From positions 1 through 39,246 of the forward strand of contig JAQWYJ010000049.1 in NCBI GenBank assembly GCA_029254005.1: a DNA stretch of 39,246 nucleotides, read 5' to 3'. The translations under genes and the position numbers were made by a program. The notes under the pieces are model-generated. The model worked only from the letters and a program-made list of their open reading frames with translations, ran no database searches and was not told where the DNA came from. The stretch is from Porticoccaceae bacterium. GTDB lineage: Bacteria; Pseudomonadota; Gammaproteobacteria; Pseudomonadales; Porticoccaceae. Positions 8,135 to 25,557 of this stretch are shown one piece after another (positions within the stretch are counted from its first letter, which is position 1; each line of letters opens with the position of its first letter).

Positions 8135-10648
8135 ATGAAGAAAAATGCGCAGGTAGTAGTTGTTGGTGGTGGGGTGGTGGGAGTGAGTACTCTTTATCAT
8201 TTAGCTAAAAAAGGTTGGACAGATGTAGTTTTAGTAGAACGAAAGGAGCTAACATCTGGTTCTACTTGGCATGCCGCCGGATTATTACCGTTGTTTAACA
8301 TGAGTTATTCGGTCGGTAAACTTCATCAGTACTCGGTAAATTTTTATCATGAGTTAGAAAAAGAGACTGAGCAAAATGTCGGTTTTAGCGTAGTCTCTAA
8401 CATCCGATTGGCCTCTACTGAGGATCGAATGGATGAATACAAATATTATGCTGGAGTCGCTCAAACGGTGGGTGTTGAAGTTAATTTTCTTACCCCAGAA
8501 CAGGTCAAAGAAGCGTGGCCCATGTGTAACACCGACGGACTTATAGGTGCTATTCAACATCCAGATGATGGGTATATTCAGCCTGCGGACCTAACCCAGG
8601 CCCTGGCCAAGGGCGCGCGAGCCAGAGGTGCTGAAATTTATCGAAACACTGTAGTTGTTGACTTAGAGCAACGACCAGATGACAGCTGGATTGTAAAGAC
8701 AGACAAGGGCGACATTAACTGTCAACATGTGGTTTGTTGTACAGGAAATTTTGCCCGTCAAACAGGTGAAATGGTTGGTTTAGATATCCCGGTCATTCCT
8801 GTAGAGCATCAGTATATAGTCACAGATCCGCATCCAGATATCTTAGCGCGCAAAGCCGCTGGACTCCCAGAGCAAGCGGTATTGCGAGAGTCAGATGCGG
8901 GTTATTATCTGCGAGAGGAAGCTGGTGGCATGATTTTGGGGCCCTATGAAGAGGGAGCTCCTTGTTGTTATGTTGATGGACCCAACGCGGAGTCCGAGTA
9001 CGAACTTTTTAATGGTGATCTTGATCGTCTTTTGCCACATGTCGAAGCCTGTATGAATCGTGTCCCTGCATTTGCAGAGGTTGGTGTTAAAACTATTTAT
9101 AACGGTGCCATTGCTTATACACCAGACGGAAATCCTATTGTTGGTCCCGCCTGGGGGCTAAAGAACTTCTGGCTTAATGAAGGCCATAGCTTTGGCATTA
9201 CTGCTGCTGGCGGCGCTGGTTGGCAGCTGGCTGAATGGATTGTGGATGGCGAACCCACTGTCGATATGATGGGAGTGGACCCACGACGATTTGGCCCTTA
9301 TGCCACCAGAGGCTATTTGCGTCGCAAAAATGAAGAGGCTTATGATCACGTGTTCAAAAATCATTACCCTGATGAAGAACGCAGCGCTGCCAGACCTCTT
9401 AAGACATCTCCCTGTTATGATCGAATGAAAAATCTCGGTGCAGTATTTGGTAGTATCTATGGATGGGAGCGACCAAATTGGTTCGCTCCAAATGACTATT
9501 CTCTGTCGGCTAATGATCTAGATAAGGACGACACGCTGTGGAATAAAAACCACTCAACAGCGTTAGCTGATGGCCGGATTGTAGAGAAGAACTCATTTAG
9601 ACGTTCCAATTACTTTGACTTTGTGGGCAATGAATGTCGCCATGTACACGAAAAAGTAGGCCTTTTGGATATGTCAGCTTTTTCTAAAGCTACGGTATCT
9701 GGGGGTGGTGCTGAAGCGTGGTTAAATAGTATTGTGGCTAATAATGTCCCTAAGGCGATTGGCAGAATTGGTCTTTGTCACATGCTCTCCCTAAATGGTG
9801 GTGTCAGAGCAGAATTTACCATTTATAAACGGGCAGAAAATAGCTATTACCTAGTTTTCGCCGGTGCTAGCGAGCGCCATGACTGGGACTACCTAACTAA
9901 ACTTGCACCTAGAGACGGATCAGTTCAACTGCAAAAAATCACAACTCAAATGGGTGTTCTAGTGCTGGCGGGCCCAAAATCTAGAGCGGTGCTGCAAAAG
10001 CTGACAGACACTGATTTGTCTAATGATAATTTTAAGTGGCTAACTGGTAAGCCTATCAATGTAGGCTATGCGCAGGCGGAGGCGCTTCGGGTTAATTTTG
10101 TGGGTGAACTGGGTTGGGAACTTCATCACCCAATTGAAATGCAAAATTACATATTTGATGAGCTTATTAAGGCCGGTGCAGAGTTTGATATTAAGCCTTT
10201 TGGTATCCGTGCAATGGACTCTATGCGATTAGAAAAATCCTATCGTTTAATTCCTCGAGAAATGTCTATCGAATACGCAGCGCTAGAATCAGGCTTGGAT
10301 CGCTTTGTAAGACTGGATAAACCTATTGATTTCGTGGGTAAAGCAGCCTTGCTTGCATGGCAAGATCGTGGCTTTATCAATCGATTTGTTACATTAGAGG
10401 TGCACGATATTACTGATGCAGACGCTCGCGGATCTGAAGGTCTTTATAAAGACGGCGAGCTCGTTGGGCGAGCGACTTCAGGTGGTTTTGGATTTCGAGT
10501 GAATAAATCTTTGGCCCTGGGCTTAGTTAAGAGTGAATTCGCAGTGGTAGGCACTCAGTTGCGTATTGAAATTCTTGGGCGGCTTCATCGAGCCACAGTG
10601 ATTCCAGAATCTGCTTTTGATCCAGATAATGTCGCGCTTAGAAGCTAA
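8135..10648 (+). CDS. Dimethylglycine/sarcosine dehydrogenase-like flavoprotein with GcvT domain
   Basis: An ~837-residue two-part enzyme. The N-terminal DAO-type FAD domain begins VVVVGGGVVGVSTLYHLA, and SGSTWHAAGL puts a His at residue 46, where DMGDH/SARDH relatives bind FAD covalently. The C-terminal half (from ~440) is a GcvT-like THF-binding domain (HEKVGLLDMSAFSK, FVGELGWELH). The family oxidatively removes N-methyl groups and passes them to THF as methylene-THF. The ATG at 8135 is preferred over that at 8120 because GAGAG lies just upstream and the FAD fold starts soon after. As first gene of the rightward operon, before the MttB homologue and with soxBDAG further down, dimethylglycine is the likeliest substrate; other N-methyl amines remain possible. 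Confidence 0.85.
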   Translation: MKKNAQVVVVGGGVVGVSTLYHLAKKGWTDVVLVERKELTSGSTWHAAGLLPLFNMSYSVGKLHQYSVNFYHELEKETEQNVGFSVVSNIRLASTEDRMDEYKYYAGVAQTVGVEVNFLTPEQVKEAWPMCNTDGLIGAIQHPDDGYIQPADLTQALAKGARARGAEIYRNTVVVDLEQRPDDSWIVKTDKGDINCQHVVCCTGNFARQTGEMVGLDIPVIPVEHQYIVTDPHPDILARKAAGLPEQAVLRESDAGYYLREEAGGMILGPYEEGAPCCYVDGPNAESEYELFNGDLDRLLPHVEACMNRVPAFAEVGVKTIYNGAIAYTPDGNPIVGPAWGLKNFWLNEGHSFGITAAGGAGWQLAEWIVDGEPTVDMMGVDPRRFGPYATRGYLRRKNEEAYDHVFKNHYPDEERSAARPLKTSPCYDRMKNLGAVFGSIYGWERPNWFAPNDYSLSANDLDKDDTLWNKNHSTALADGRIVEKNSFRRSNYFDFVGNECRHVHEKVGLLDMSAFSKATVSGGGAEAWLNSIVANNVPKAIGRIGLCHMLSLNGGVRAEFTIYKRAENSYYLVFAGASERHDWDYLTKLAPRDGSVQLQKITTQMGVLVLAGPKSRAVLQKLTDTDLSNDNFKWLTGKPINVGYAQAEALRVNFVGELGWELHHPIEMQNYIFDELIKAGAEFDIKPFGIRAMDSMRLEKSYRLIPREMSIEYAALESGLDRFVRLDKPIDFVGKAALLAWQDRGFINRFVTLEVHDITDADARGSEGLYKDGELVGRATSGGFGFRVNKSLALGLVKSEFAVVGTQLRIEILGRLHRATVIPESAFDPDNVALRS

Positions 10649-10789
10649 CGTAAAGTAACTTTTTGGTGTCGCAAGGGTATACAGCAATGTCGTTAGTTAG
10701 TATGCGAAAAAGCCTAAATCAGCACAGAATTCGAGGCTTAAAAGCAGGATTAGAACCGTCGATAAAAAACCTTAACTGGACGCATTGAG

Positions 10790-12343
10790 ATGACTGAAGC
10801 AACGGCAAGACGAAGATCTGGGCGAAGTGGCGGTGGCCGTGAGGGGCGGCGTGAAGCTCGCGCTAAGACCACGGTTGAAATTACGCCCTATATTGATCGT
10901 AAAATTCCTTATTTGGAATATCTTAGCGAGGAAAGTTTACAGATTATTGAAGATAACGCAGATACCATCCTTCAAGAAATAGGCATTGACTTCCTTGATG
11001 ATGCTGAAGCATTGGATATGTGGAGAGCTGCAGGTGCAGACGTTAAGGGGACTCGTGTGCGTTTCCCTAAAGGCCTCTGCCGTTCATTAATTCAGGCAAC
11101 AGCTCCCAGAGAATACGTGCAACATGCAAGAAATCCTCAGCGAAGCACGATTATTGGTGGCAAACGCACGGTTTTAGTGCCAGCTTATGGTTCTCCTTTT
11201 GTGCATGATATAGATCAAGGACGCCGATATGCGACCATCGAGGACTTTAACAATTTCGTTAAACTTGCCTACATGGCCCCGGGCTTACATCATTCTGGCG
11301 GCACAGTCTGTGAGCCCGTAGATTTACCAGTGAATAAGCGCCACTTCGATATGATTTATAGTCACTTTAAATACAGTGATAAGCCATTGATGGGGTCGGT
11401 GACACATTATGAGCGTGCTCAAGACACAGTTGATATGGCAAAGCTTGTTTTCGGCGATGAATTTGTCGATCAAAATTGTGTCTTGACTAGTTTGATTAAC
11501 GTTAATTCTCCAATGACCTATGATGCTACGATGCTTGGTTCTCTAAAGGTCTATGCTCGAAATAATCAAGCGACTGTAGTGTCACCGTTTATTTTGGCTG
11601 GCGCAATGTCCCCTGTGACAGCAGCGGGTACGGTGACGCAAATTCTTGCAGAGGCCTTGGCTGGCATTGCGTTTACACAGCTCTGTCGACCAGGTGCACC
11701 GGTGATCTTTGGAACGTTCGCAGCGGCCGTTTCAATGGCTTCTGGCGCGCCTACTTTTGGTACCCCAGAGCCCAGTCAAATTCTCTATGCGGCAGCGGCG
11801 CTTGCACGCAGGCTCGGTGTGCCATTTCGTAGTGGTGGAGGTCTTTGTGGGTCTAAAATACCTGATGCCCAAGCAGCCTATGAGGCGGCTAATACTTTGC
11901 AAACAGCATCTCTTGCGGGAGTTAATTTTATGCTGCATACCGCTGGGTGGTTGGAGGGTGGATTAGCCATGGGTTATGAGAAATTTATTATGGACTGTGA
12001 TCAAGCCAGTATGATTTCAGTGTTACTTGGTGGTATGGATATGTCAGAAAATGGACAGGGTTTAAGCGCTGTGCGCGAAGTTGGACCGGGTAAACATTAT
12101 TTGGGCTCAGCACACACCCTAGCGAATTTTGAAACAGCTTTTTATCGCTCAACGGTTGCTGACAACAATAGTTTTGAACAATGGACCGCCGATGGTGCTC
12201 TAGATGCTGCTCAACGAGCCAATATTTTGTGGAAAAAAATGCTCAATGAGTATCAGGCGCCAGCGTTAGATCCGGCGATTGATGAAGCGTTAAATGATTT
12301 TATGGCTCGACGCAAAGGATCCTTTGCTGATCGCGACTATTAA
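10790..12343 (+). CDS. MttB-superfamily corrinoid methyltransferase without pyrrolysine
   Basis: A 517-residue member of the trimethylamine methyltransferase (MttB/COG5598) family, whose members move a methyl from a methylamine to a corrinoid protein. The frame has no internal TAG, so it lacks the pyrrolysine of true MttB and belongs with homologues such as MtgB that act on quaternary amines like glycine betaine. Recognisable blocks include LQEIGIDFLDDAEALDMWRAAGA, CEPVDLP, SGAPTFGTPEPSQ and MDMSENGQGLSAVREVGPG. Residues 7-27 are a basic Arg/Gly-rich extension (RRRSGRSGGGREGRREARAK) outside the catalytic barrel. The corrinoid partner follows after 23 bases. The context favours glycine betaine; proline betaine or carnitine are alternatives. 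Confidence 0.88.
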   Translation: MTEATARRRSGRSGGGREGRREARAKTTVEITPYIDRKIPYLEYLSEESLQIIEDNADTILQEIGIDFLDDAEALDMWRAAGADVKGTRVRFPKGLCRSLIQATAPREYVQHARNPQRSTIIGGKRTVLVPAYGSPFVHDIDQGRRYATIEDFNNFVKLAYMAPGLHHSGGTVCEPVDLPVNKRHFDMIYSHFKYSDKPLMGSVTHYERAQDTVDMAKLVFGDEFVDQNCVLTSLINVNSPMTYDATMLGSLKVYARNNQATVVSPFILAGAMSPVTAAGTVTQILAEALAGIAFTQLCRPGAPVIFGTFAAAVSMASGAPTFGTPEPSQILYAAAALARRLGVPFRSGGGLCGSKIPDAQAAYEAANTLQTASLAGVNFMLHTAGWLEGGLAMGYEKFIMDCDQASMISVLLGGMDMSENGQGLSAVREVGPGKHYLGSAHTLANFETAFYRSTVADNNSFEQWTADGALDAAQRANILWKKMLNEYQAPALDPAIDEALNDFMARRKGSFADRDY

Positions 12344-12366
12344 TACCTATTTGAGGGTTATAAACC

Positions 12367-13068
12367 ATGTCTGACAACGACGATATTATATTAGCTGATT
12401 TACCTGATGATGAACTTATGCTGCAAATGCATGATGATCTCTACGATGGACTTAAAGAAGAGGTTATGGAGGGTACCGAGATTTTATTGCAACGTGGGTG
12501 GTCAGCTGAGCGAGTGTTGGGAGAAGCTTTGGTTGATGGTATGACAGTTGTGGGTGTTGATTTTCGCGATGGCATATTGTTTGTTCCAGAAGTACTTTTG
12601 GCGGCAAATGCAATGAAAGGAGGTATGACTATTTTAAAGCCTCTACTTGCCGAGACTGGTGCAAAACCTGTAGGTACTATGGTTATTGGCACGGTGAAAG
12701 GCGACATTCATGATATAGGCAAGAATTTAGTGTCTATGATGATGGAAGGTGCTGGTTTTGAGGTACATGATATTGGTATTAATAACTCGGTTGAAGAATA
12801 TCTCGCTGCACTGGAGCGGCACAAGCCAGACATACTGGGTATGTCGGCTCTACTTACAACAACGATGCCTTACATGAAAGTAGTAATTGATGCTCTTGCT
12901 GAACAGCAATTGCGAGAAAAGTATATTGTTATGGTGGGTGGTGCGCCATTGAATGAAGAATTTGGCTTAGCGGTTGGTGCCGATGCTTATTGTCGTGATG
13001 CAGCTGATGCAGCTACTACAGCCATTCGCTTGGTGTCTGAGCGAAGAGAGTTAGAAATGGCGGGCTGA
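12367..13068 (+). CDS. Corrinoid (B12-binding) methyl carrier protein
   Basis: A 233-residue methyl carrier of the MtaC/MtbC/MttC type. A helical cap domain (~20-95, with GMTVVGVDFRDGILFVPEVL) precedes a Rossmann-like B12 domain with GTVKGDIHDIGKNLV. This holds the base-off signature D113-x-H115-x-x-G118, in which His115 ligates cobalt. VMVGGAPLNEEFGLAVGADAY near the end forms the nucleotide-tail pocket. It carries methyl from the upstream MttB homologue to the THF methyltransferase encoded downstream. Its stop overlaps the DUF1638 start (TGATG). Confidence 0.93.
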   Translation: MSDNDDIILADLPDDELMLQMHDDLYDGLKEEVMEGTEILLQRGWSAERVLGEALVDGMTVVGVDFRDGILFVPEVLLAANAMKGGMTILKPLLAETGAKPVGTMVIGTVKGDIHDIGKNLVSMMMEGAGFEVHDIGINNSVEEYLAALERHKPDILGMSALLTTTMPYMKVVIDALAEQQLREKYIVMVGGAPLNEEFGLAVGADAYCRDAADAATTAIRLVSERRELEMAG

Positions 13069-13691
13069 TGATGCTAGTCAGTGAACCTAATCACCCATCA
13101 CCGATTTTAATTATCGCCTGTGGTGCATTGGCGCATGAAATTATAGCTCTACAAGCACTCAATGGTTGGAATCATATGGACCTAACTTGTCTCGATGCTG
13201 AGCTGCATAACAAGCCCCAGTTGATCGCCGGTAAGCTGCGCCAAAAGATTGCCCAGCATCGCGATGATTACGATAATATTTTTGTTGCCTATGCAGACTG
13301 CGGTACTGGCGGAGCGATTGACAAAGTTATACTCGAAGCGGGTATTGAACGATTGCCAGGTGCCCATTGTTATTCTTTTTTTGCTGGTGAGAAGCAGTTT
13401 ACGGCGATAGCCGAGCAGGCAATTGGAACATTTTATTTGACCGATTTTTTAGTTAAACATTTTCAACGACTTGTGATCCAAGGTTTAAAGCTTGATAGTC
13501 ATCCGGAGTTACGCAATCAACTTTTCGCGCACTATACTCATTTGGTTTATCTCTCGCAGACTCAAGATTCTTTGTTGGTTGAACAAGCCAAGGCAGCAGC
13601 TAAGGCGCTTGGTTTGGTGTTTAAACATCATCATTGTGGTTATGGTGATTTACAAAATGGGCTTGAAAAGCAAATTTTAAAGTTTGGTTAG
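13068..13691 (+). CDS. DUF1638 family protein
   Basis: A 207-residue protein of the DUF1638 family, for which I know no biochemical function. Seen: IIACGALAHEI at the N-terminus, YADCGTGGAID around residue 70, a middle segment LPGAHCYSFFAGE, and KHHHCGYGDL near the end. The three Cys-Gly motifs and the His run suggest a metal or Fe-S site, but this is a guess. The ATG overlaps the corrinoid gene's stop, with a second ATG immediately following, so translation is coupled. DUF1638 genes are known companions of corrinoid methylamine methyltransferases, which argues for a role in assembling or loading that system. Confidence 0.8.
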   Translation: MMLVSEPNHPSPILIIACGALAHEIIALQALNGWNHMDLTCLDAELHNKPQLIAGKLRQKIAQHRDDYDNIFVAYADCGTGGAIDKVILEAGIERLPGAHCYSFFAGEKQFTAIAEQAIGTFYLTDFLVKHFQRLVIQGLKLDSHPELRNQLFAHYTHLVYLSQTQDSLLVEQAKAAAKALGLVFKHHHCGYGDLQNGLEKQILKFG

Positions 13692-13725
13692 TGAAATTTT
13701 TAATGTGATTGGGAGTGGTTGAGAG

Positions 13726-14037
13726 ATGCAAAAGATTCTTGTTTTTTGGCGCGACATTCCCGCTCAGGTACTGGTGAAACGCGGGCGTGAGCGTGGCAAA
13801 ACGATATTAAGCCACCGTTTTCAAGCCGCCATTGATCGAGCTGCCATGCGTGCTGGTAAGGGCGGTAGTGACGAGTATTTGGCCGACTGGCGGCGAGAGA
13901 CTATCACGATAGATAGTTCAGAGAGTCCTCAGTCGCTGGCCGATCAGATGGCGGCTGAAATAGAGATGACGTTTTCAGATGAAGACATTAAACTATTGGT
14001 CAAAAGTAAAGGCCTTAAGGTTGAGAAAAAGGTCTAG
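13726..14037 (+). CDS. Small PF13769 ('virulence factor')-like protein
   Basis: A 103-residue soluble protein. ILVFWRDIPAQVLVKRGRER, then SHRFQAAIDRAAMRAG and YLADWRRE match what I recall of the small Pfam family labelled 'Virulence_fact', a name of little value here. There is no signal peptide or membrane segment; the N-terminal half is basic and the C-terminal half acidic. It lies 34 bases after DUF1638 and 77 bases before the MetF-like gene. Its place inside a corrinoid operon suggests an accessory role in that pathway rather than virulence. The function is unknown. Confidence 0.65.
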   Translation: MQKILVFWRDIPAQVLVKRGRERGKTILSHRFQAAIDRAAMRAGKGGSDEYLADWRRETITIDSSESPQSLADQMAAEIEMTFSDEDIKLLVKSKGLKVEKKV

Positions 14038-14114
14038 CTGCAAATGTATAAATACTTATACCTCAAAAGCCTGACCTCAGTGTATTTTATCTACAAACAA
14101 CGGAGACTATATTA

Positions 14115-15050
14115 ATGCCGCCAAGTATGGTTGAAGAAAAGCAAGCATTGGTTGATATGATGCTCAAGACTACGCTAGAGGTGACCCCAGGTGGCGCCGC
14201 TAAGGTTGCCGATTTTGGTCCAATACTGCGACCTGGCTGTACGGTTTATGTAACATTTTTACCCGGCTCTGACTTCGCCGAGACACTGACCACTGTCCGT
14301 AGGTTAAAGTCTGATGGTTATAACCCAGTACCACATTTTGCGGCTCGCTCCATAGTTTCTTCTGCCATATTAGAAGAGAACTTGGCGGCATTGCAGCATG
14401 AAGGCGTTAGTGAAGGTCTCTTGATTGGCGGTGGTGTGGATAAACCTTTGGGAGAATTTGGTGCCTCCATAGACGTGTTGCGTACAGGTCTTTTTGAGAA
14501 GTACAGCTTCACTAAATTAGGCGTGGCGGGGCATCCTGAGGGGAGTCCAGATATTTCTGATGGAGATTGTGCAATAGCCATTGAACAGAAAAATAAGTAT
14601 GCCAAAAATAGCTCTATGGAGCTCTATTTGGCGACTCAGTTTATTTTTGAAGCGCAACCCTTATTGGCGTGGGAGAAGAGAATTCGTCAACAGGGTAATA
14701 AGCTACCAGTTCATGTTGGTATTCCCGGTTTGGCTACTATTAAGACACTGCTGCGACACGCACAGCATTGTGGTGTAGGACCGTCTATGCGCTTTTTAAC
14801 GCGCAGTCCCATGAACATGTTGCGATTAAGTTTAAAAGATTCATTTTTGGGGTCGTATTTGAATGCACCTGCATCAGAACCCAGTGAGTTGGTTAGGGAT
14901 TTGGTTGCAGGCATGGGTAAGGATAAGGATTGTCTGATCAAACAGCTTCATCTGTATCCTCTTGGTGGATTAGCTAAGTCAGCGCAGTGGATGCATAAAG
15001 TTCAGGATGGTCATTTCCAGCTCACTGGGAATGGTTTTAAAACACTATAA
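14115..15050 (+). CDS. Methylenetetrahydrofolate reductase (MetF-like)
   Basis: A 311-residue flavin-type MTHFR domain protein. Landmarks are the N-terminal LEVTPGG turn, VYVTFLPGSDF, the NPVPHFAARSI segment that corresponds to the pterin/flavin region of MetF, LLIGGGVDKPLGEF, and LGVAGHPEGSPDIS. Ordinary MetF makes 5-methyl-THF for methionine. Placed between corrinoid methyltransferase genes, this one more likely runs in reverse, oxidising methyl-THF from demethylation to methylene-THF. That direction, and the electron acceptor, are inferred. A CGGAG ribosome site precedes the ATG. Confidence 0.85.
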   Translation: MPPSMVEEKQALVDMMLKTTLEVTPGGAAKVADFGPILRPGCTVYVTFLPGSDFAETLTTVRRLKSDGYNPVPHFAARSIVSSAILEENLAALQHEGVSEGLLIGGGVDKPLGEFGASIDVLRTGLFEKYSFTKLGVAGHPEGSPDISDGDCAIAIEQKNKYAKNSSMELYLATQFIFEAQPLLAWEKRIRQQGNKLPVHVGIPGLATIKTLLRHAQHCGVGPSMRFLTRSPMNMLRLSLKDSFLGSYLNAPASEPSELVRDLVAGMGKDKDCLIKQLHLYPLGGLAKSAQWMHKVQDGHFQLTGNGFKTL

Positions 15051-15108
15051 ATGCTTAAACATTACCGGGTAAAACGAGTGCTTATAAACATTAATAACAG
15101 GATAAATT

Positions 15109-16002
15109 ATGACCATTACCACCATTAGTTCTGCCACAAAAGAGGTTCATATTGGCTTTGATCAGCCCTTTGTTATTATCGGTGAGCGTATTAACCCCAC
15201 CGGCCGAAAGATTCTTGCCGAAGAGATGAAAGTAGGAGATTACAGTAGAGTTGAGTCTGATGCGCTGGCCCAAGTTCTGGCTGGAGCCCATATGCTTGAC
15301 GTTAACGCGGGTATTCCTCTGGCGGATGAGCCGCGAATACTGGGTGAAACGATTCAACTTGTGCAGTCAATTACAGATGTGCCTATCAGTATAGATTCTT
15401 CGATTATTGAGGCTCTTGAAGTTGGTTTGTCGGTTTATCAGGGCAAGGCACTCGTTAATTCGGTAACAGGTGAAGATGAAGTGCTTGAACGGGTACTTCC
15501 TCTAGTCAAGAGATATGGTGCGGCGGTTGTCGCTATTTCAAATGATGAAACTGGTATTTCAGAAGATCCTGATGAGCGCTTTTTGGTAGCCAAAAAAATT
15601 GTTGAGCGAGCTGCTGATTATGGTATTCATTACAGCGATGTAGTAGTCGACCCGCTTGTGATGCCTATTGGAGCGATTAACACGGCGGGACTTCAGGTGA
15701 TGCATGTGGTCAAGCGCCTGCGCGAGGAACTTAAAGTTAATACTACCTGTGGTGCGTCAAATGTAAGCTTTGGGCTACCCAATCGGAATGGCATTAATAG
15801 TGCTTTTTTAACTATGGCCATGGGAGCCGGCATGACTTCTGCAATTACCAGTCCGCTGCATCCTGAAGTAATGCAGGCGGTTCGTGGTGGCGATGTAATG
15901 ATGGGTAAGGATGCGAATTGCGCTAACTGGATCAAGGCTTATCGTGACCCCAGCGCAGACACAGGGCGTGGTGGTCGTTCTGGGCGTCGTCGTGCTCGAT
16001 GA
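15109..16002 (+). CDS. Methyl-THF:corrinoid methyltransferase (pterin-binding domain, MtgA-like)
   Basis: A 297-residue pterin-binding TIM-barrel protein like AcsE, MtgA and the pterin domain of MetH. Seen: GERINPTGRK at about residues 25-34, DVNAGIPLADE, ISIDSSIIEALE, VNSVTGEDEVL, ISNDETGI, DPLVMPIG, and NTTCGASNVSFGLPNRNGIN. These motifs are the THF pocket. In this operon it would take methyl from the methylated corrinoid protein and give it to THF. The last 12 residues, GRGGRSGRRRAR, form a basic Gly/Arg tail outside the barrel, like the N-terminus of the MttB homologue. Confidence 0.88.
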   Translation: MTITTISSATKEVHIGFDQPFVIIGERINPTGRKILAEEMKVGDYSRVESDALAQVLAGAHMLDVNAGIPLADEPRILGETIQLVQSITDVPISIDSSIIEALEVGLSVYQGKALVNSVTGEDEVLERVLPLVKRYGAAVVAISNDETGISEDPDERFLVAKKIVERAADYGIHYSDVVVDPLVMPIGAINTAGLQVMHVVKRLREELKVNTTCGASNVSFGLPNRNGINSAFLTMAMGAGMTSAITSPLHPEVMQAVRGGDVMMGKDANCANWIKAYRDPSADTGRGGRSGRRRAR

Positions 16003-16030: not shown

Positions 16031-18064
16031 ATGATAGATAATCAGGTAAAGGTTGTCTTTACTCCCTCTGGAAGGCGTGGCAGTTTTCCTGTTAACACCT
16101 CTTTACTTGATGCTGCGCGCAGTCTTGGTGTCGATATTGATTCGGTGTGCGGTGGACGTGGTCTTTGTGGGCGCTGTCAAGTAACCTGTAGTGAGGGTAG
16201 TTTTCCCAAACATCAAATCACCTCTGCCAATAAGCATTTATCGCCGATAAGCGAAACCGAAAAGAATTATAACCAGCGTAAAAAATCTCTAGCTGAGGGT
16301 CGTCGTCTAAGTTGCCACACTCTTCTCCTTGATGATTGTGTTATTGATGTTCCTGCGGAAAGTCAGGTGCATCGGCAGATTGTTAGAAAAGATGCTGAAT
16401 ACCGAGATATTAAGCTGGATGTTGCCACTAAACTATATTACGTGGATGTGCCAGAGCCTGATATGGCTATTCCCAAGGGCGATTTGCAGCATTTATTAAA
16501 AGTGTTAGCTACTGACTGGGACTTAGATGAATTAACCTGTGACCCCTTACTTCTGGGGCAATTACAACCTTTATTAAAGAAGGCTGGACGTAAACTAACG
16601 GTAGCTGTGCATAAAAATCAAACGATTATAGCCCTCTGGCCAGGTTTTTTTGATCAGGCTTATGGTGTCGCCGTTGATGTCGGTTCTACTACTGTGGCCG
16701 CGCATCTCTGTGACCTAGCTAGTGGAGAGGTTGTTGCCAGTGCAAGCTTGATGAATCCACAAATTCGCTTCGGGGAAGACCTGATGAGTCGAGTTTCTTA
16801 CGTGATGATGCATCCCGAAGGGGTTGTTGAAATGAGCAGGGTGATCCGCGAGGCTCTAAATAGTCTGTTTGTCGAGGTCACCAAAAAAGTTAATGTCGCG
16901 GTTGAATATATTGTTGAGGTCACACTTGTGGCTAATCCAATTATGCATCACCTGCTGCTTGGAATAGACCCGGTAGAGTTAGGCGGCGCGCCTTTTGCCT
17001 TAACTACTGATGCGGCGATCGAGATTCGCGCCGGTGATCTTGATCTGAATATTAATCGTGGTGGGCAACTTTATATATTACCCTGCATTGCCGGACATGT
17101 CGGTGCTGATACCGCAGGGATGATCTTGTCAGAGGAACCTCAGCAACAAGAAAAAATGACCCTTTTGGTAGATGTGGGGACCAATGCTGAAATCGTGCTT
17201 GGTGACAAACATCGCTTGCTAGCATGCTCAAGTCCCACTGGACCCGCTTTTGAGGGCGCTCAAATTAGTTGTGGTCAGCGCGCAGCTGCTGGCGCCATAG
17301 AGCGTGTGCGTATTGACCCTGAATCTCTAGAGGCAACCTTCAAGATAATTGGTTCTGAGTTATGGTCCAATGAGCCTGGCTTTGATGAGCAAACCTCTAG
17401 TTTTGGTGTAACTGGAATATGTGGCTCAGGAATTATTGAAGTAGTAGCAGAAATGTATCTTGCTGGCGTGATTACTGAGGATGGTGTTGTTGACGGCGAC
17501 CTAGCGGTCTCTTCCTCTCGGGTTATAGCCGATGGACGAACATTTTCCTATGTACTCTATCAGCCAACTGCTGCTGATGGCCTAGGTGCCAGTAATCAGA
17601 CGCCTATTGTTATCACTCAAAATGATGTACGCCAAATTCAGCTTGCTAAAGCGGCCTTATACGCTGGTGTTAAATTACTCATGGATAAACTTGAAATACA
17701 GCATATAGATCGTATTCGACTCGCTGGAGCTTTTGGTAGTCATATTAATGTACAACACGCTATGATTTTGGGTCTGATTCCCGATTGTGCTTTAAATCAC
17801 GTCTCTTCTGCCGGTAACGCGGCAGGTACAGGTGCAAGAATTGCCTTATTAAATCAACAATCCCGTCATACTATTGAAGGTTTGGTTGCTAATATAGAAA
17901 AAATTGAGACGGCAATGGAATCTAAATTTCAACAATATTTTGTTGATGCAATGGCGTTTCCTAACAAAGTTGATTCTTTTTCCAATCTATTTTCTGTGGT
18001 GAAGAAGCCAGTTAATAAAACTATTACTCCAGAGGTTTCTGGTCGCAAACGCCGGCGGCGCTGA
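16031..18064 (+). CDS. RACo-like reductive activator of corrinoid proteins (2Fe-2S + ASKHA)
   Basis: A 677-residue protein that should reduce inactive Co(II) corrinoid to Co(I) using ATP. The N-terminal plant-type ferredoxin domain has Cys40, Cys46, Cys49 and Cys95 (VCGGRGLCGRCQ ... RRLSCHT), the usual 2Fe-2S set. The rest is the ASKHA/DUF4445 ATPase region: AVDVGSTTVAAHLCDL, LVDVGTNAEIVLG, SSPTGPAFEGAQISCG, GICGSGIIEVVAEM and LAGAFGSHI. The C-terminus ends SGRKRRRR, a third basic tail in this operon. RACo proteins are best known from acetogens and related anaerobes. Here the gene closes the corrinoid gene run, before the regulator. Confidence 0.9.
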   Translation: MIDNQVKVVFTPSGRRGSFPVNTSLLDAARSLGVDIDSVCGGRGLCGRCQVTCSEGSFPKHQITSANKHLSPISETEKNYNQRKKSLAEGRRLSCHTLLLDDCVIDVPAESQVHRQIVRKDAEYRDIKLDVATKLYYVDVPEPDMAIPKGDLQHLLKVLATDWDLDELTCDPLLLGQLQPLLKKAGRKLTVAVHKNQTIIALWPGFFDQAYGVAVDVGSTTVAAHLCDLASGEVVASASLMNPQIRFGEDLMSRVSYVMMHPEGVVEMSRVIREALNSLFVEVTKKVNVAVEYIVEVTLVANPIMHHLLLGIDPVELGGAPFALTTDAAIEIRAGDLDLNINRGGQLYILPCIAGHVGADTAGMILSEEPQQQEKMTLLVDVGTNAEIVLGDKHRLLACSSPTGPAFEGAQISCGQRAAAGAIERVRIDPESLEATFKIIGSELWSNEPGFDEQTSSFGVTGICGSGIIEVVAEMYLAGVITEDGVVDGDLAVSSSRVIADGRTFSYVLYQPTAADGLGASNQTPIVITQNDVRQIQLAKAALYAGVKLLMDKLEIQHIDRIRLAGAFGSHINVQHAMILGLIPDCALNHVSSAGNAAGTGARIALLNQQSRHTIEGLVANIEKIETAMESKFQQYFVDAMAFPNKVDSFSNLFSVVKKPVNKTITPEVSGRKRRRR

Positions 18065-19166: not shown

Positions 19167-19168
19167 TA

Positions 19169-20182
19169 CTACGTGCGACGGATGTCAGTGGGTTTTTTAC
19201 CAAATGTTTGGCGAAATGCTCTAGAAAAATGTGCGGTGTCAGAAAATCCTGAGTCTTGACCTATCTCGGTAATCATTCGGTTGGTATTTTGCAACAGCCA
19301 TAAACCATAGCGAAGACGTATTTGGCGATAACATTTTTGCAGCGTAGTGCCTGTTTCTCGAGTAAATAAGCGTTCCAGCTGCCGTTTAGAAATGGCCAGT
19401 TTAGTCGCTATTTCATCAGTATTAAGTGGCCTACTTAAATTCTGCTCCATTAAAGAAACGGCTCTAGTCACCCAACGGTTAGTAACCTTGGGGTCAGCTT
19501 CAGGTTGGCGAGCTTCAGCTGGCCTTGGACGATCCATCACAAGGATACGCAAGCTTTTTCGTGCCCACTTTTGCCCGAGATGGCGCTCAATAATATACGC
19601 CGCAAGATCTGCGGCCACAGCGCCGCCTGCGCACGTAATTCTGTCACCATCATCGACAAATAACTGATTTGCAATGGGAATTACCGAGGTGTATCTGTGG
19701 GTTAAATCTTGGTAGTGGAACCAGCTAATGCAACAGCGACGATGATCCATTAAACCAGCTCGAACCATTGCAAAAGATCCTGTGCATAGTCCGATAATAG
19801 GAACATGGTTGTCAGCTGCTAGCTTTAAGTAATCAATAACATGCTGGCTGCCGGTAAGTGTCTTTTCCAGTAATCCACCAACTACAACAATGTAATCAAA
19901 ATCAGTTGGATTTCGATAGGTCTCCCACGGTTTAACCGTTACTCCCGCACTTGCAGTAATAGGATTCAAATTCGGCGCCATTAACGTCCACTGGCAGTTT
20001 ATTTGACGGCTTTTATCACCTTCATCTGCCGCTAAACGCAATGCGTCTATAAAGGCTGAAAAAGGCAGTAGAGTAAATTGAGGCATCAAAACAAAACCCA
20101 CCGATAGATGTGTGGTGGAGGTTATTTTTGTTGTTTGATTGCCTATCAACCACCATCTCCTAATGTCGTTTTGGTTCAACAT
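19169..20182 (-). CDS. GlxA-type AraC family transcriptional regulator, GbdR-like
   Basis: A 337-residue protein of the same plan as its convergent neighbour: an amidotransferase-like N-terminal domain (VGFVLMPQFTLLPFSAFIDA; GLCTGSFAMVRAGLMD) and a C-terminal AraC HTH (TKLAISKRQLERLFTRETG; DSGFSDTAHFSRAFRQTFG). The sequence identity to the neighbour looks low, so these are old paralogues rather than a recent duplication. It is divergent from soxB across 173 bases, the usual arrangement for an activator and its target, so I infer that it controls soxBDAG. Confidence 0.88.
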   Translation of the reverse strand: MLNQNDIRRWWLIGNQTTKITSTTHLSVGFVLMPQFTLLPFSAFIDALRLAADEGDKSRQINCQWTLMAPNLNPITASAGVTVKPWETYRNPTDFDYIVVVGGLLEKTLTGSQHVIDYLKLAADNHVPIIGLCTGSFAMVRAGLMDHRRCCISWFHYQDLTHRYTSVIPIANQLFVDDGDRITCAGGAVAADLAAYIIERHLGQKWARKSLRILVMDRPRPAEARQPEADPKVTNRWVTRAVSLMEQNLSRPLNTDEIATKLAISKRQLERLFTRETGTTLQKCYRQIRLRYGLWLLQNTNRMITEIGQDSGFSDTAHFSRAFRQTFGKKPTDIRRT

Positions 20183-20318: not shown

Positions 20319-20355
20319 AATAGAGGTTCAATTAAACTTTACTGTAGTGATATCA

Positions 20356-21606
20356 ATGAAACGATATTCAGGCTTTAGTCTTTTCGCCAATGCACTTAGT
20401 TACCATGAGAAATGGCAAAAAGTATGGCGAAAACCGATACCCAAAAAAGAGTATGACGTGATTGTTGTCGGCGGTGGCGGTCATGGTTTGGCAACTGCTT
20501 ATTATCTGGCCAAGGTGCATGGTATCACCAATGTAGCGGTGATTGAAAAAGGGTATTTGGGAGGCGGAAATACAGCGCGTAATACGACTATCATTCGTTC
20601 TAATTACTTGTGGGATGAAGCTGCGCAACTCTATGAATTGTCATTGAAGCTGTGGGAAGGGTTAAGTCAAGAATTAAACTACAACGTTATGTTCAGTCAA
20701 CGAGGAGTACTTAATCTTGGTCACACGCTACAAGACATGCGAGACATCGAGCGTAGGGTGAATGCTAATCGCCTAAATGGTATTGATGGAGAGGTTGTTT
20801 CACCAAAAAGGATTAAAGAGATTGCTCCACTAATTAATACATCGCCAAATAGTCGCTATCCCATATTAGGTGCGTCATGGCAGCCTCGTGGCGGGACAGC
20901 TCGTCATGATGCGGTTGCCTGGGGTTATGCAAGAGGCGCAGATGCATTGGGAGTGGATATGATCCAACAAACTGAGGTGACTGGTATTCGTCGGAAAAAT
21001 GGCGCAGTGATCGGAGTGGATACTACTCAAGGGTTTATCGGTGCGCGAAAAGTTGCCTGCGTTACTGCCGGAAACTCTGGTGTTGTGGCGGCCATGGCAG
21101 GCCTGCGCCTACCAGTGGAGTCTCGACCCTTACAAGCGTTGGTTTCTGAACCTGTGAAACCCTGCCTAGATACGGTGGTTATGTCTAATGCAGTGCACGG
21201 GTATGTGAGCCAGTCAGATAAAGGTGATCTTGTCATAGGCGCTGGGGTAGATAGCTATAACGGCTACGGCCAGCGCGGGTCATTTCATGTGATCGAGCAT
21301 ACAGTTCAGGCAATTTGTGAACTATTCCCTGCTTTTAGTCGGGTGCAAATGAATCGTCAATGGGGTGGTGTTGTAGACACCTGCCCTGATGCCTGCCCAA
21401 TTATTAGCAAGACCTCTGTTGAGGGACTGTACTTTAACTGTGGTTGGGGTACCGGTGGTTTTAAAGCAACCCCAGGTTCAGGGTTTGTTTTTGCAGACAC
21501 AGTTGCCAATGATCGGCCCCATCCACTGGCAAAAGCGTTTACCGTCGATCGCTTTAACAGCGGTGCGCTTATTGATGAGCATGGTGCGGCTGGTGTTGCC
21601 CACTAA
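20356..21606 (+). CDS. soxB: Sarcosine oxidase subunit beta
   Basis: The FAD/FMN-bearing beta subunit of heterotetrameric sarcosine oxidase, which oxidises sarcosine to glycine with transfer of the methyl to THF and production of H2O2. It starts with the family's MKRYSGFSL, so the ATG at 20356 is chosen over the GTG at 20347. [19 protein letters not shown] is the FAD-binding fold at ~34-52. The [10 protein letters not shown] segment near 181-190 holds the His expected to carry the covalent FMN. The length (416 residues) is normal. It leads soxBDAG. Confidence 0.95.
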
Positions 21607-21636: not shown

Positions 21637-21927
21637 ATGTTATTAATCTATTGTCCACATTGTTTAGAGTCTCGTGAAGAGGAAGAGTTTAGTTATGGCG
21701 GTGAGGCTCATATTGCACGACCGCTGGATCCAGAGAATCTAAGTGACGAACAGTGGGGCGACTACCTGTTTTTTCGTAAAAATCCACGCGGCATTCATCA
21801 CGAAATGTGGTACCACGCCACTGGGTGTCGACGCTATTTTAATGTCACCAGAAATACGCTGACCTATGAAATTTTAGAGAGCTACCTTGTAGGTACCGAG
21901 CCGCAGATAACAGAGGTTGGAGTATGA
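21637..21927 (+). CDS. soxD: Sarcosine oxidase subunit delta
   Basis: The 96-residue zinc-binding small subunit. Cys6 and Cys9 (YCPHC) with His60 and Cys64 (WYHATGCRRYF) give the zinc site, and GEAHIARP and DYLFFRKNPRG are family blocks. Its stop overlaps the soxA start (ATGA), so the two are translationally coupled. Confidence 0.95.
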   Translation: MLLIYCPHCLESREEEEFSYGGEAHIARPLDPENLSDEQWGDYLFFRKNPRGIHHEMWYHATGCRRYFNVTRNTLTYEILESYLVGTEPQITEVGV

Positions 21928-24900
21928 AACAGAAGAACCGCCTAGTTGTTTTTGGCCGCACTGACCCAAATCAACCGATTAACTTCACGTTCAATGGTAA
22001 ACCATATCAAGGGTTGTTAGGTGATACCTTAGCCTCTGCGCTACTAGCCAATGGCGTTAATGTTGTTGGGCGAAGTTTTAAATATGCTCGACCTCGAGGC
22101 ATTGTTGGCCATGGACCAGAGGAGCCAAATGGTATTATTCAGCTAGGCTCTGGTAGTGCTACGGTGCCAAATTTAAAAGTCACTCAGGTAGAGCTTTATG
22201 AAGGTCTTGATGCTAAAAGTGTCAACGGCTGGCCAAGCGTTAATATTGACGTCATGGGTCTGGTGGGTGCCTTTGGTCGGCTTATGCCACCGGGTTTCTA
22301 TTATAAGACGTTTATGTATCCAAAAAAGCTTTGGATGACCTACGAACACTTTATTCGCAAAGCTGCAGGACTGGGTAAAACGCCCACCGAGGCTGATCCA
22401 GATACCTATGAAAAGCTAAATCAGCATTGCGATGTATTGGTGGTCGGTGCTGGGCCTGCTGGGTTAACGGCAGCTTTAGAGGCGGGCCTTACTGGTGCTC
22501 GAGTAATTATAGCGGATGAGCAAAGCGAGTTTGGTGGAAGCCTTCTTGCGTCGACACAGCCTATTGATGATCAATCATCAACAGACTGGATTGCACAAAC
22601 AGTTTCGGCAATAACCGCAATGCCCAATGTACAGCGACTGAGTCGAAGCACCGTGTTTGGTTATTATGACCACAATTTTTTGACTATCTTAGAAAAGCGT
22701 ACGGATCATCTAGGGATCAATTCGCCGCAAGGCGCGCGACAGCGATTGCACCGCGTGCGTGCTAAACAGGTCGTATTGGCCACTGGTGCCTTTGAGAGAC
22801 CACTGGTATTTGCGCACAATGACATTCCTGGTGTTATGCAAGCATCATCGGTATCAACTTACGTGAATCGCTATGGTGTTGCACCAGGTGAAAAGTTGGT
22901 TTTGGCTACCACTAATGATAATGCCTATCAAACAGCTATTGACTGGTATAACAGTGGGCGGGTAGTGGTAGCTGTGGTAGATACTCGCCAGGCTACAAAT
23001 GGCCCATTGGTTAGTCATGTCAAAGATCTTGGGATCGAGGTCTTACAGGGTTACGGTGTTATTCAAGCTATGGGTTCAAAGCGGGTACGAGGCGCTTTAG
23101 TGGCGCCCCTTAATGAAAATGGCACTAAGGTAACTGGTCCTGTTGAGCAACTGAAATGTGACCTAATTGCTACCTCAGGTGGCTGGAGTGCGGCTGTGCA
23201 TCTAAGCTCACACACCGGCGCTAAACCGATTTGGGATGACGCTATCGTAAGTTTTCGACCAGGGATTTCAAAGCAACAAGAGCGTTCAGTGGGTGCTTGT
23301 AATGGTACTTTTGATCTTGCGCAAGGACTTTTAGAGGGTGCCTTAGCAGGTTCTGAAGCAGCGCAGCTTGCAGGATTTGGTGATGGTCAAGTCAAGAGAG
23401 GTATGCCCATTGTTAATACGCTTGAAGAACAAGCTCAGCAGGCACTTTTTTTAATTCCTCATACGCTGCCGAGTAGCAGAGCACCGAGTCAATTTGTAGA
23501 CTTGCAGTTAGATGTCAGTGCTGCTGGGATTGAGCTTGCTGTAACCGAGGGCTTTGAGAGCGTTGAGCATGTAAAACGCTACACCGCATTGGGTTTTGGC
23601 ACCGATCAAGGCAAACTGGGTAATATCAATGGCATGGCTATTTTAGCCAACGCACTTGGTCAGAGTATTGCCGAAACAGGAACTACAATTTTTCGGCCCT
23701 CCTATACACCAACAACCTTTGGTGCTATTGCCGGACGTGATATTGGCGAGTTGTTTGATCCAGAGCGCTACACTGCCATGCACCGTTGGCACGAGCAACA
23801 AGGTGCAGTTTTTGAAGATGTTGGCCAGTGGAAACGACCTTGGTTTTTCCCTAATCAACAAGAAACCATGCACCAAGCGGTTAATCGAGAGTGTATGGCG
23901 GTGCGCAACAGCATTGGTATTCTTGATGCCAGCACCTTAGGAAAAATTGATATCCAAGGTCCTGATGCGGCGGAATTTATTACCCGTATGTATACCAATT
24001 CTTACCTCACATTAGCCCCTGGAAAATGTCGCTATGGGGTTATGTTAAAAGAAGACGGAATGATTTTTGATGATGGTGTGTGCGCCTGCATTAGTGATAA
24101 CCATTACTTGATGTTTACTACTACCGGTGGCGCCGCTGGTGTATTAGCGTGGCTAGAGCTTTGGCAGCAAACCGAATGGCCAGAGTTGCAGGTTTACTTC
24201 ACGTCAGTGACCGACCACTGGGCTACCGCCACTATTACTGGGCCCAATGCACGTAATGTGATGGCAAAAGTATGTGATGATATTGACCTTAGTGCGGATA
24301 AATTCGGCTTTATGGATTGGCGAGATGGCACAGTTGCTGGCCTAGCTGCACGGGTTTTTAGAATCAGTTTTACCGGTGAATTAACTTACGAGATTAACGT
24401 TGCGGCGAACTATGGTCGTTACCTATGGGAAAGATTAATGGCCGCTGGTGCCGAGTTCGACATAACGCCTTATGGAACCGAGGCCATGCACGTTTTGCGG
24501 GCTGAAAAAGGCTTTATCATCGTAGGGCAGGATACCGACGGTTCTATGACGCCCACTGACATGAACATGGACTGGGTAATTGGTAAGAAAAAAACCTTTA
24601 GTTTTGTCGGCAAGCGTTCACTTGAAAGAAGCGACTGTTTGCGTGATAACCGCAAACGGTTGGTAGGATTAAAAACGTTGGTGCCTACAGCGGTCATTCC
24701 TGAAGGTGCTCAGATTGTTAATGATCCTCATCAGCCACTACCTATGGCTATGCAAGGGCACGTGACATCCAGCTACTTTAGTGCAAACCTTGATCATTCT
24801 ATTGCTTTGGCCGTGGTAAAAGGAGGTTTAAATAGAATGGGTGAGATCGTCTATTGTCCGGCAGCAGATGGATCGTCGATTGCCGCAGAAATTGTTAATT

Positions 24901-24941
24901 CAGTGTTTTATGATCCCAAAGGAGAGCGTCAACATGTCTGA
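21924..24941 (+). CDS. soxA: Sarcosine oxidase subunit alpha
   Basis: A 1005-residue subunit at full family length. An N-terminal ferredoxin-like domain (FTFNGKPYQGLLGDTLASAL, FKYARPRGIVG) is followed by a nucleotide-binding domain (CDVLVVGAGPAGLTAALEA near 170-190) and a C-terminal GcvT-like THF-binding domain (from ~610: ECMAVRNSIGILDASTLGKI, FTGELTYEINV, AEKGFIIVGQDTDG). It forms the SoxABDG complex, with the THF site close to the flavin so that formaldehyde is captured as methylene-THF. The ATG overlaps soxD by four bases. Confidence 0.95.
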   Translation: MKQKNRLVVFGRTDPNQPINFTFNGKPYQGLLGDTLASALLANGVNVVGRSFKYARPRGIVGHGPEEPNGIIQLGSGSATVPNLKVTQVELYEGLDAKSVNGWPSVNIDVMGLVGAFGRLMPPGFYYKTFMYPKKLWMTYEHFIRKAAGLGKTPTEADPDTYEKLNQHCDVLVVGAGPAGLTAALEAGLTGARVIIADEQSEFGGSLLASTQPIDDQSSTDWIAQTVSAITAMPNVQRLSRSTVFGYYDHNFLTILEKRTDHLGINSPQGARQRLHRVRAKQVVLATGAFERPLVFAHNDIPGVMQASSVSTYVNRYGVAPGEKLVLATTNDNAYQTAIDWYNSGRVVVAVVDTRQATNGPLVSHVKDLGIEVLQGYGVIQAMGSKRVRGALVAPLNENGTKVTGPVEQLKCDLIATSGGWSAAVHLSSHTGAKPIWDDAIVSFRPGISKQQERSVGACNGTFDLAQGLLEGALAGSEAAQLAGFGDGQVKRGMPIVNTLEEQAQQALFLIPHTLPSSRAPSQFVDLQLDVSAAGIELAVTEGFESVEHVKRYTALGFGTDQGKLGNINGMAILANALGQSIAETGTTIFRPSYTPTTFGAIAGRDIGELFDPERYTAMHRWHEQQGAVFEDVGQWKRPWFFPNQQETMHQAVNRECMAVRNSIGILDASTLGKIDIQGPDAAEFITRMYTNSYLTLAPGKCRYGVMLKEDGMIFDDGVCACISDNHYLMFTTTGGAAGVLAWLELWQQTEWPELQVYFTSVTDHWATATITGPNARNVMAKVCDDIDLSADKFGFMDWRDGTVAGLAARVFRISFTGELTYEINVAANYGRYLWERLMAAGAEFDITPYGTEAMHVLRAEKGFIIVGQDTDGSMTPTDMNMDWVIGKKKTFSFVGKRSLERSDCLRDNRKRLVGLKTLVPTAVIPEGAQIVNDPHQPLPMAMQGHVTSSYFSANLDHSIALAVVKGGLNRMGEIVYCPAADGSSIAAEIVNSVFYDPKGERQHV

Positions 24942-25557
24942 ATCATTGCAGCCTCAGCCACGTTTTGAATCACCTTCACATTATGTAAGGGGTCGCCATT
25001 CCGGAAATGTACAAAGTGTAACTGACGCTGGTCTCGTCGTAACCGAGGTCAATAATGGCTGTTATCTCAATCTGCGAGGTGATGCCAGTAATGCAGAGTT
25101 TAATGCTGCTGTTTTGTCAGTTTTAGGTATCTCTCTGCCACTTATGCCAGGTACTTTTATGGCTAATGATACTGAATGTTTATATTGGCTTGGCCCCAAC
25201 GAGTGGTTATTGGTGAGTGCACAGCCGGGGCAGAAACGCGAGGCTGAGTTACGAGCAGTGTTAAATGGTCATATTGCTGTTGTCGATGTAAGTGGAGGTT
25301 TTACTCAACTTAACTTAAGTGGTCCCAGCCTGAACTTTGTTCTTAAAAAGTCTAGTGTCTATGATTTTGAAGCATGGTGGATTCAGCCTAAAAATGATCT
25401 GCGTTGTGTGCAAACCACCTTTGCAAAAGCCTCAGCATTGGTGATTGGCCAGTCTCAGGGCACCGTTGCTATTATTATTCGGCGCAGTTTTACCGACTAT
25501 ATCGCTCAGTGGCTACTAGACTGCGCAGCTGACAATGGATGTTTTATCAGCCCCTAG
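24934..25557 (+). CDS. soxG: Sarcosine oxidase subunit gamma
   Basis: A 207-residue protein with the SoxG pattern (ALNG-like turn replaced here by LNLRGDASNAEF, CLYWLGPNEWLLVS, VVDVSGGFTQLNLSG, and FTDYIAQWLLDCA at the end). The ATG at 24934 is chosen because GGAG lies nine bases upstream and the next residues fit the family; an open frame back to 24841 lies inside soxA. It overlaps the soxA end by eight bases. It completes soxBDAG; no purU, glyA or folD follows. Confidence 0.92.
   Translation: MSESLQPQPRFESPSHYVRGRHSGNVQSVTDAGLVVTEVNNGCYLNLRGDASNAEFNAAVLSVLGISLPLMPGTFMANDTECLYWLGPNEWLLVSAQPGQKREAELRAVLNGHIAVVDVSGGFTQLNLSGPSLNFVLKKSSVYDFEAWWIQPKNDLRCVQTTFAKASALVIGQSQGTVAIIIRRSFTDYIAQWLLDCAADNGCFISP

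What the first reader, a model, noticed from the sequence alone, without database searches (positions are those of the whole stretch)
8135..25557. Corrinoid (Co(I)) demethylation module joined to oxygen-linked amine oxidases
An MttB homologue, corrinoid protein, methyl-THF:corrinoid methyltransferase, MetF and RACo form one run, flanked by a DMGDH-like enzyme, soxBDAG and divergent fhs. Together they could strip all three methyls from glycine betaine: the first by corrinoid chemistry, the others oxidatively. No Rieske-type GbcAB or betaine:homocysteine methyltransferase lies here, so the MttB homologue is the natural candidate for the first step. Co(I) chemistry is oxygen-sensitive, so its use beside H2O2-making SoxBDAG is striking.
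Basis: partly seen in the sequence, partly recalled or inferred. Interest (0 to 1): 0.78.

Follow-up and report, generated by a model that had tools for sequence, protein, structure and literature searches.

The report
Aerobic vitamin-B12 betaine-stripping gene cluster
A marine SAR92-type bacterium carries a known kind of vitamin-B12-dependent gene cluster for removing methyl groups from the common osmolyte glycine betaine, and it lacks the usual methionine-making genes, which raises the question whether betaine now supplies its methionine methyl groups.

Summary
Window 8120-18064 is one co-directional run: DMGDH, MttB-family methyltransferase, corrinoid protein, DUF1638, PF13769, MetF-like, methyl-THF:corrinoid methyltransferase, RACo. 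Divergent fhs, two GbdR-like regulators and soxBDAG flank it. The genome is a SAR92-clade assembly.

The kind is known. Mausz et al. (PNAS 2025, PMC12478193) describe MtgBCD(E) as an aerobic, cobalamin-dependent betaine demethylase, including marine Gammaproteobacteria with co-located demethylation genes. Oxygen is thus no objection, and the DMGDH matches dehydrogenases better than oxidases.

Two features look like a variant. (1) The window's MetF resembles MetF2 of chloromethane plasmid pCMU01; 27 of 44 classed family genomes have another form. (2) Of the 17 genomes with the window's form, 13 lack both MetH and canonical MetF; of the 27, none lack both. In the window's genome both native sites are empty in unbroken sequence, MetE is undetected, and the one stand-alone homocysteine methyltransferase is not MtgE-type.

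The boldest reading, that betaine methyl on MtgC supplies methionine, is untested; five relatives without MetH, canonical MetF or MttB suggest that methionine scavenging also occurs.

The parts
6217..7884 (-). fhs, formate-tetrahydrofolate ligase, divergent; would run in reverse to release formate and make ATP (direction inferred)
   Evidence: PF01268 894 bits; PRK13505 913 over cut-off 652
8120..10648 (+). dimethylglycine dehydrogenase-like (DAO + FAO_M + GCV_T)
   Evidence: DMGDH 4pab 625 bits, bacterial DMG oxidase 1pj5 321
10790..12343 (+). mtgB, MttB-superfamily betaine:corrinoid methyltransferase; Leu aligned to the X (pyrrolysine) position of the TMA methyltransferase 7xcl
   Evidence: PF06253 756 bits; PDB 4yyc, 2qne, 9yce
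12367..13068 (+). mtgC, corrinoid protein
   Evidence: PF02310 + PF02607; below both curated MtgC models, 193 vs 370 and 162 vs 310; PDB 1y80 175 bits
13068..13691 (+). DUF1638 protein, proposed corrinoid reactivation factor
   Evidence: PF07796 105 bits; fitness data in P. inhibens from passages of PMC5764234
13726..14037 (+). PF13769 small protein (labelled 'virulence factor' in Pfam; function here unknown)
   Evidence: 70.6 bits; found in 48 of 80 relative loci
14115..15050 (+). MetF resembling pCMU01 MetF2, proposed to oxidise methyl-THF
   Evidence: 35% identity to the pCMU01 MetF; 7xg9 159 bits; PF02219 only 24.6 bits
15109..16002 (+). mtgD, methylcorrinoid:THF methyltransferase
   Evidence: PRK07535 359 bits over cut-off 259
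16031..18064 (+). RACo/RamA-like reductive activator of corrinoid proteins
   Evidence: PF14574 295, PF17651 164, PF17650 73, Fer2 31 bits
18183..19166 (+). GbdR-like regulator 1
   Evidence: NF052371 421 bits, cut-off 480
19169..20182 (-). GbdR-like regulator 2
   Evidence: NF052371 194 bits, cut-off 480
20347..21606 (+). soxB
   Evidence: TIGR01373 716 over cut-off 529
21637..21927 (+). soxD
   Evidence: TIGR01374 126.5 over cut-off 116.5
21924..24941 (+). soxA, with THF-binding GCV_T domain
   Evidence: TIGR01372 1422 over cut-off 1164
24841..25557 (+). soxG (ORF as listed; it overlaps soxA, so the true start is probably later)
   Evidence: PF04268 82 bits, residues 79-230

Best explanation
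This is an MtgBCD-type catabolic operon for glycine betaine in an (inferred) aerobic marine gammaproteobacterium. MtgB moves one methyl from betaine to Co(I) on MtgC, leaving dimethylglycine; MtgD passes it to tetrahydrofolate; the MetF2-like protein oxidises methyl-THF to methylene-THF. DMGDH and SoxBDAG remove the other two methyls, also onto THF, and reverse Fhs would release formate with ATP gain. RACo, probably with DUF1638, re-reduces MtgC oxidised by air. GbdR-like regulators would switch it on by betaine or dimethylglycine. Shown by sequence: gene content, families, order, conservation, empty native sites of metH and canonical metF. Inferred: substrate, direction of each step, regulation.
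For: Families and cut-offs. MtgB is nearest to 4yyc and to the glycine betaine methyltransferase 9yce/2qne, far from TMA methyltransferase. Named relatives at 68-70% identity: in Sinorhizobium meliloti with bmt about 6 kb and a glycine betaine/proline transporter gene about 9 kb away, and on an Azoarcus plasmid directly beside a choline transporter gene with betA and betB 3-6 kb away. One MttB in the genome, no Rieske protein over the GbcA cut-off, no PF02574 protein over the BHMT cut-off. R. pomeroyi mtgC and mtgD mutants cannot grow on betaine even with methionine (PMC12478193, parts 1-4 of 6 read). CM4 metF2 is essential for chloromethane growth (PMC3621897, passages); a SYK-6 MTHFR oxidises methyl-THF (PMC12585457, whole short text).
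Against: No assay exists for this organism. MtgC scores below both curated MtgC models and both regulators score below the GbdR cut-off. R. pomeroyi sequences themselves were not compared. A Rieske oxygenase of unknown substrate exists elsewhere in the genome. Cobalamin supply, FolD and formate dehydrogenase were not searched. The genome is 94.5% complete.
Confidence: 0.85

Rival explanations
1. The module demethylates another quaternary amine (proline betaine, carnitine, gamma-butyrobetaine, choline), and DMGDH and SoxBDAG beside it serve betaine from another route.
For: MttB-family members differ in substrate (PMC12478193 discussion); no betaine-binding residue was tested here.
Against: DMGDH and SoxB match the products of betaine demethylation and both lie with the full module in 14 of 80 relative loci; the nearest solved homologue with a named substrate is a betaine enzyme; GbdR-like regulators.
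Confidence: 0.1
2. The C47 Rieske oxygenase is the real first step for betaine and the MttB module serves only other purposes such as methionine synthesis.
For: Its best NCBIfam hit is GbcA (274 bits).
Against: Far below the curated cut-off of 670; its best solved matches are 3vca, 4qup and 3n0q (218-232 bits; that 3vca and 4qup are stachydrine demethylases is recalled); by eye its neighbours are a glutamine-synthetase-like gene, a T-protein-like gene, oxidoreductases and a polyamine-type transporter, and no GbcB-like reductase ORF was noticed in the 16 kb read (not scanned).
Confidence: 0.05
3. On methionine (not exclusive of the main explanation): methionine in this lineage is simply scavenged, or the stand-alone methyltransferase uses another donor such as S-methylmethionine; loss of metH and metF has nothing to do with the betaine module.
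For: G098, G101, G103, G105 and G110 have no MetH, no canonical MetF (G110 has one 16-bit PF02219 hit), no MttB and no PF02574 protein; G098 and G105 are 97 and 96% complete. Of the 13 genomes of the window's MetF form without MetH and MetF, 7 have no PF02574 protein. The G000 protein is nearest to the PRK09485 homocysteine S-methyltransferase model.
Against: G000 keeps this protein, and 7 further genomes hold it at 53-94% identity, all 8 with at least part of the module.
Confidence: 0.5

Closest known systems
MtgBCDE of Ruegeria pomeroyi and other marine bacteria (Mausz et al. 2025, PMC12478193)
   Same: MtgB, MtgC, MtgD, RamA-like activator, DUF1638, a second MetF, DMG and sarcosine genes; the paper names Gammaproteobacteria with co-located genes
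   Different: Here no MtgE-type (PRK07534) protein and no canonical MetF was found in the genome; R. pomeroyi has metF, metF2 and MtgE
MtgABC of Desulfitobacterium hafniense
   Same: MtgB homologue (417 bits to 2qne/9yce; that these come from D. hafniense is recalled), corrinoid protein
   Different: Anaerobe; MtgC here is below both curated MtgC models
CmuA/CmuB/MetF2 of Methylorubrum extorquens CM4 (PMC3621897)
   Same: Corrinoid methyl transfer to THF with a divergent MetF2 (35% identity to the window protein)
   Different: Substrate chloromethane; methyltransferase not of the MttB family (recalled)
LigM-S6MTHFR of Sphingobium lignivorans SYK-6 (PMC12585457)
   Same: MTHFR running methyl-THF to methylene-THF in a demethylation pathway; 7xg9 probably is this enzyme (recalled, not shown by a call)
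   Different: THF-dependent, not corrinoid; lignin aromatics
Bhmt of SAR11
   Same: Would join betaine and methionine as the bold reading here does
   Different: Single enzyme; the PF02574 protein here has Ala and Thr where human BHMT has Tyr77 and Tyr160 (alignment; that these bind betaine is recalled)
GbcAB
   Same: Same overall product, dimethylglycine
   Different: Rieske monooxygenase; no protein over the GbcA cut-off

Membership tests
MtgBCD betaine demethylase of aerobic marine bacteria | pfam06253 protein close to known betaine methyltransferases | tested here: met
MtgBCD betaine demethylase of aerobic marine bacteria | separate corrinoid protein and pterin-binding methyltransferase | tested here: met
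MtgBCD betaine demethylase of aerobic marine bacteria | RamA-like activator and DUF1638 | tested here: met
MtgBCD betaine demethylase of aerobic marine bacteria | methyl transfer from betaine | not testable with these tools
   needs assay
MtgBCDE split methionine synthase | MtgE (PRK07534-type) in the genome | tested here: not met
   the only PF02574 protein scores 59 of 338; MtgE-type proteins score 441 in relative G027 and 589 in S. meliloti
MtgBCDE split methionine synthase | no MetH and no MetE (usual, not universal) | tested here: met
TMA methyltransferase MttB (pyrrolysine) | TIGR02369 over cut-off, Pyl position | tested here: not met
   257 of 525; Leu at the Pyl column
GbcA | NF058607 over cut-off for the Rieske alpha of the genome | tested here: not met
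   274 of 670; single Rieske alpha over the Pfam cut-off
CM4-type MetF2 | closer to MetF2 than to canonical MTHFR | tested here: met
   by scores, no tree was made:
CM4-type MetF2 | oxidises methyl-THF | not testable with these tools
   needs assay

The most novel reading that the evidence does not exclude
In the SAR92-family lineages with the MetF2-like form, loss of metH and canonical metF cut methionine off from the usual methyl-folate route. Methyl-corrinoid made from betaine by MtgB, or from methyl-THF by MtgD, is handed by MtgC to a stand-alone homocysteine methyltransferase that is not MtgE (G000:C13:8357-9241), so the catabolic operon doubles as the methionine synthase and betaine becomes the main or obligate source of methionine methyl groups: a corrinoid counterpart of SAR11 Bhmt with a new kind of acceptor subunit.
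Probability: 0.22. Interest if true: 0.7.

Novelty: new variant of a known kind. Interest (0 to 1): 0.42.

Why it matters
Betaine is an abundant marine osmolyte. The locus places a published B12 route in SAR92, and strain HTCC2207 (contig CH672397.1; a cultured strain, recalled) carries the sister form of the operon. The joint loss of metH and metF in lineages with one form makes a testable question: can a betaine-catabolic corrinoid protein be the cell's methionine synthase, so that these bacteria need betaine, B12 or methionine from algae?

Tried and rejected
Considered and dropped: TMA methyltransferase (below cut-off, Leu at the Pyl column); Rieske GbcA as first step (below cut-off); BHMT elsewhere (below cut-off); a hidden MetH or MetF lost in assembly gaps (both native sites are contiguous and empty in G000). 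An Rfam gathering scan of the window found 0 matches. Independence: only 2 independent pairs on the tree, so the link between MetF form and loss is not shown to be more than shared ancestry; the Fisher p of 4.6e-8 ignores kinship. Literature: nine searches. For SAR92 with glycine betaine and methyltransferase one paper was listed, on sea-ice brines, not opened; (85 papers, 15 listed) listed Mausz et al. first. Papers not named in this report were seen as listings only, except PMC13001107, of which passages were seen. I did not find the metH/metF pattern described, but the library lacks most subscription journals and the supplements and figures of Mausz et al. were not seen.
Full report
WHAT IS THERE. 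From 8120 to 18064 eight genes run in one direction with gaps of 141 bases or less: DMGDH-like, MttB family, corrinoid protein, DUF1638, PF13769, MetF-like, methyl-THF:corrinoid methyltransferase, RACo. Fhs diverges upstream; two GbdR-like AraC genes and soxBDAG follow. Named relatives place the window in SAR92-clade Porticoccaceae (best hit UBA9550, 98% in MtgB; SAR92 MED-G29 91%, HTCC2207 89%). The genome is held as 147 contigs, 2.55 Mb, 94.5% complete.

PRIOR ART. Mausz et al. 2025 (PMC12478193; I read parts 1-4 of 6, plus passages; figures and supplements not seen) show in Ruegeria pomeroyi that MtgC and MtgD are needed for betaine catabolism and for methionine synthesis, name RamA and DUF1638 as reactivation parts, suggest that MetF2 oxidises methyl-THF, and state that in marine Alpha-, Gamma- and Deltaproteobacteria the later demethylation genes often lie near mtgBCD. 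They report that 108 of 156 genomes with MtgBCD lacked MetH. Price et al. [quoted passage not shown] So the kind of system, its aerobic setting and frequent absence of MetH are known.

SUBSTRATE. MtgB scores 757 bits to 4yyc, about 417 to 2qne and 9yce (the latter named glycine betaine methyltransferase) and 112 to TMA methyltransferase. It has Leu where MttB has pyrrolysine. Kin at 68-70% lie about 6 kb from bmt in S. meliloti and within 3-6 kb of betA and betB in Azoarcus. The genome has one MTTB protein. One Rieske alpha is over the Pfam cut-off and below the GbcA cut-off; a second hit was under the Pfam cut-off with a stop inside. The DMGDH resembles solved DMG dehydrogenases (617-625 bits) more than bacterial DMG oxidases (319-321), so only SoxBDAG is expected to make H2O2 (family knowledge, recalled).

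TWO FORMS OF METF. In the family sample of 112 genomes, own genome included, MttB occurs in 49. PF02219 matches beside MtgD fall into two sets: 27 genomes at 120-139 bits and 17 at 16-28 bits, the window's among the latter. Of the first set 7 were fetched and 7 of 7 show a MetV-MetF pair (in G018 PF12225 89 bits and PF02219 128 bits). Of the second set 12 were fetched besides the window and 12 of 12 hold a single MetF at 58-93% identity to the window's. That protein is 35% identical to the MetF of the chloromethane plasmid pCMU01, a gene essential there and only 25% identical to E. coli MetF (PMC3621897, passages). Not classed: G108 (module but no PF02219 hit in it) and G015, G022, G033, G048, G051 (cut modules); G005 and G110 have weak PF02219 hits without MtgD or MttB and were left out. 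G002, G024, G032, G034 and G054 were classed by MtgD next to MetF, because MttB is missing or on another contig. On a quick module tree of 34 rows the form needs 2 changes.

LOSS OF METH AND METF. Of the 17, 13 lack both MetH and canonical MetF (G000, G001, G002, G003, G020, G024, G047, G053, G100, G102, G104, G106, G109) and 4 have both (G025, G049, G099, G111). Of the 27, 0 lack both; 4 lack MetH only (G017, G029, G046, G050, completeness 73-87%) and 2 lack canonical MetF only (G023, G034). MetH pieces at contig ends or in broken frames (such as G052, G057, G111) were counted as present. The unclassed G015 (74% complete) also lacks both. Several genomes are incomplete, so native sites were read. 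Of 13 genomes searched for ahcY, 12 had it, and in 12 of 12 (11 of them from the 13 above, plus G025) ahcY is followed by rsmE with 41-152 bases between and no metF. The 21 genomes with metF in that place were all picked from their metF hits, so they show only what the filled site looks like. Of the same 13 searched, 9 had nfuA; 8 regions were fetched (not G020, whose nfuA lies at a contig end) and in 8 of 8 no metH stands next to nfuA, whereas it does in the reference loci of G018, G036, G037 and G012, which were picked for having it. G000 shows both empty sites (C137, C89). G025 and G049 carry an adjacent metF-metH pair elsewhere, which looks like a later gain (inference). On a housekeeping tree of 33 genomes (G046 left out for too few columns; 11 of the 13 included) the loss needs 4 changes, at least 2 on well-supported branches, but only 2 independent pairs exist, so dependence on MetF form is not proven.

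METHIONINE. G000 has no MetE match, two B12-binding proteins (MtgC and, by eye, a methylmalonyl-CoA-mutase-like ORF) and one stand-alone PF02574 protein of 294 aa with GGCC and NC motifs (that these bind zinc is recalled). It scores 119 of 215 for PRK09485 and 59 of 338 for BHMT/MtgE. The same type (53-94% identity) is in G002, G003, G015, G024, G025, G049 and G053, all with at least part of the module. Of the 13 genomes without MetH and MetF, 6 have a stand-alone PF02574 protein (5 of this type, another type in G106) and 7 have none. Against the bold reading: G098, G101, G103, G105 and G110 have no MetH, no canonical MetF, no MttB and no PF02574 protein, so some relatives must obtain methionine otherwise (unless by MetE, which was tested only in G000), and metH and metF can be missing without the module.

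VERDICT. A member of the published MtgBCD kind with a MetF2-like MetF and without MtgE; ordinary in its main function, with an open and testable question about methionine.

Noticed in passing
L007 (G000:C47:1-16000): Rieske oxygenase (best solved matches 3vca, 4qup) beside, by eye, a glutamine-synthetase-like gene, a T-protein-like gene, several FAD oxidoreductases and a polyamine-type ABC transporter: a possible second N-demethylation cluster of unknown substrate.
   Followed up: partly
L149 10877-11338 and 9894-10880 (G018): 27 of 44 classed family modules have the stronger MetF form; in 7 of 7 that were fetched it is a MetV-MetF pair, an arrangement known from acetogens.
   Followed up: partly
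L144 4621-9221, L145 4208-8832 (G025, G049): Adjacent metF-metH pair away from the native sites; the native sites that were read (both in G025, metH in G049) are empty.
   Followed up: partly
G098, G101, G103, G105, G110: Genomes of one genus code of the family (g14) with no MetH, no canonical MetF, no MttB and no PF02574 protein.
   Followed up: no
window 25717-27096: Fumarase/aspartase-like lyase after soxG, also found beside the module in G003 and G049; no fumarase or aspartase equivalog cut-off is reached.
   Followed up: no
window 31370-35599: TonB-dependent receptor-like ORF and a membrane ORF that looks PepSY-like, both by eye, perhaps iron uptake.
   Followed up: no
window 281-751 and L008 15556-18531: Repeated segments resembling dockerin/EF-hand repeats in two proteins of the genome (by eye).
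   Followed up: no
L087, L089, L093, L096, L104, L107, L112: In 7 of 80 named relative loci an MtgE-like gene lies in the mtgB locus; none of the loci titled Porticoccaceae among the 80 shows one.
   Followed up: partly
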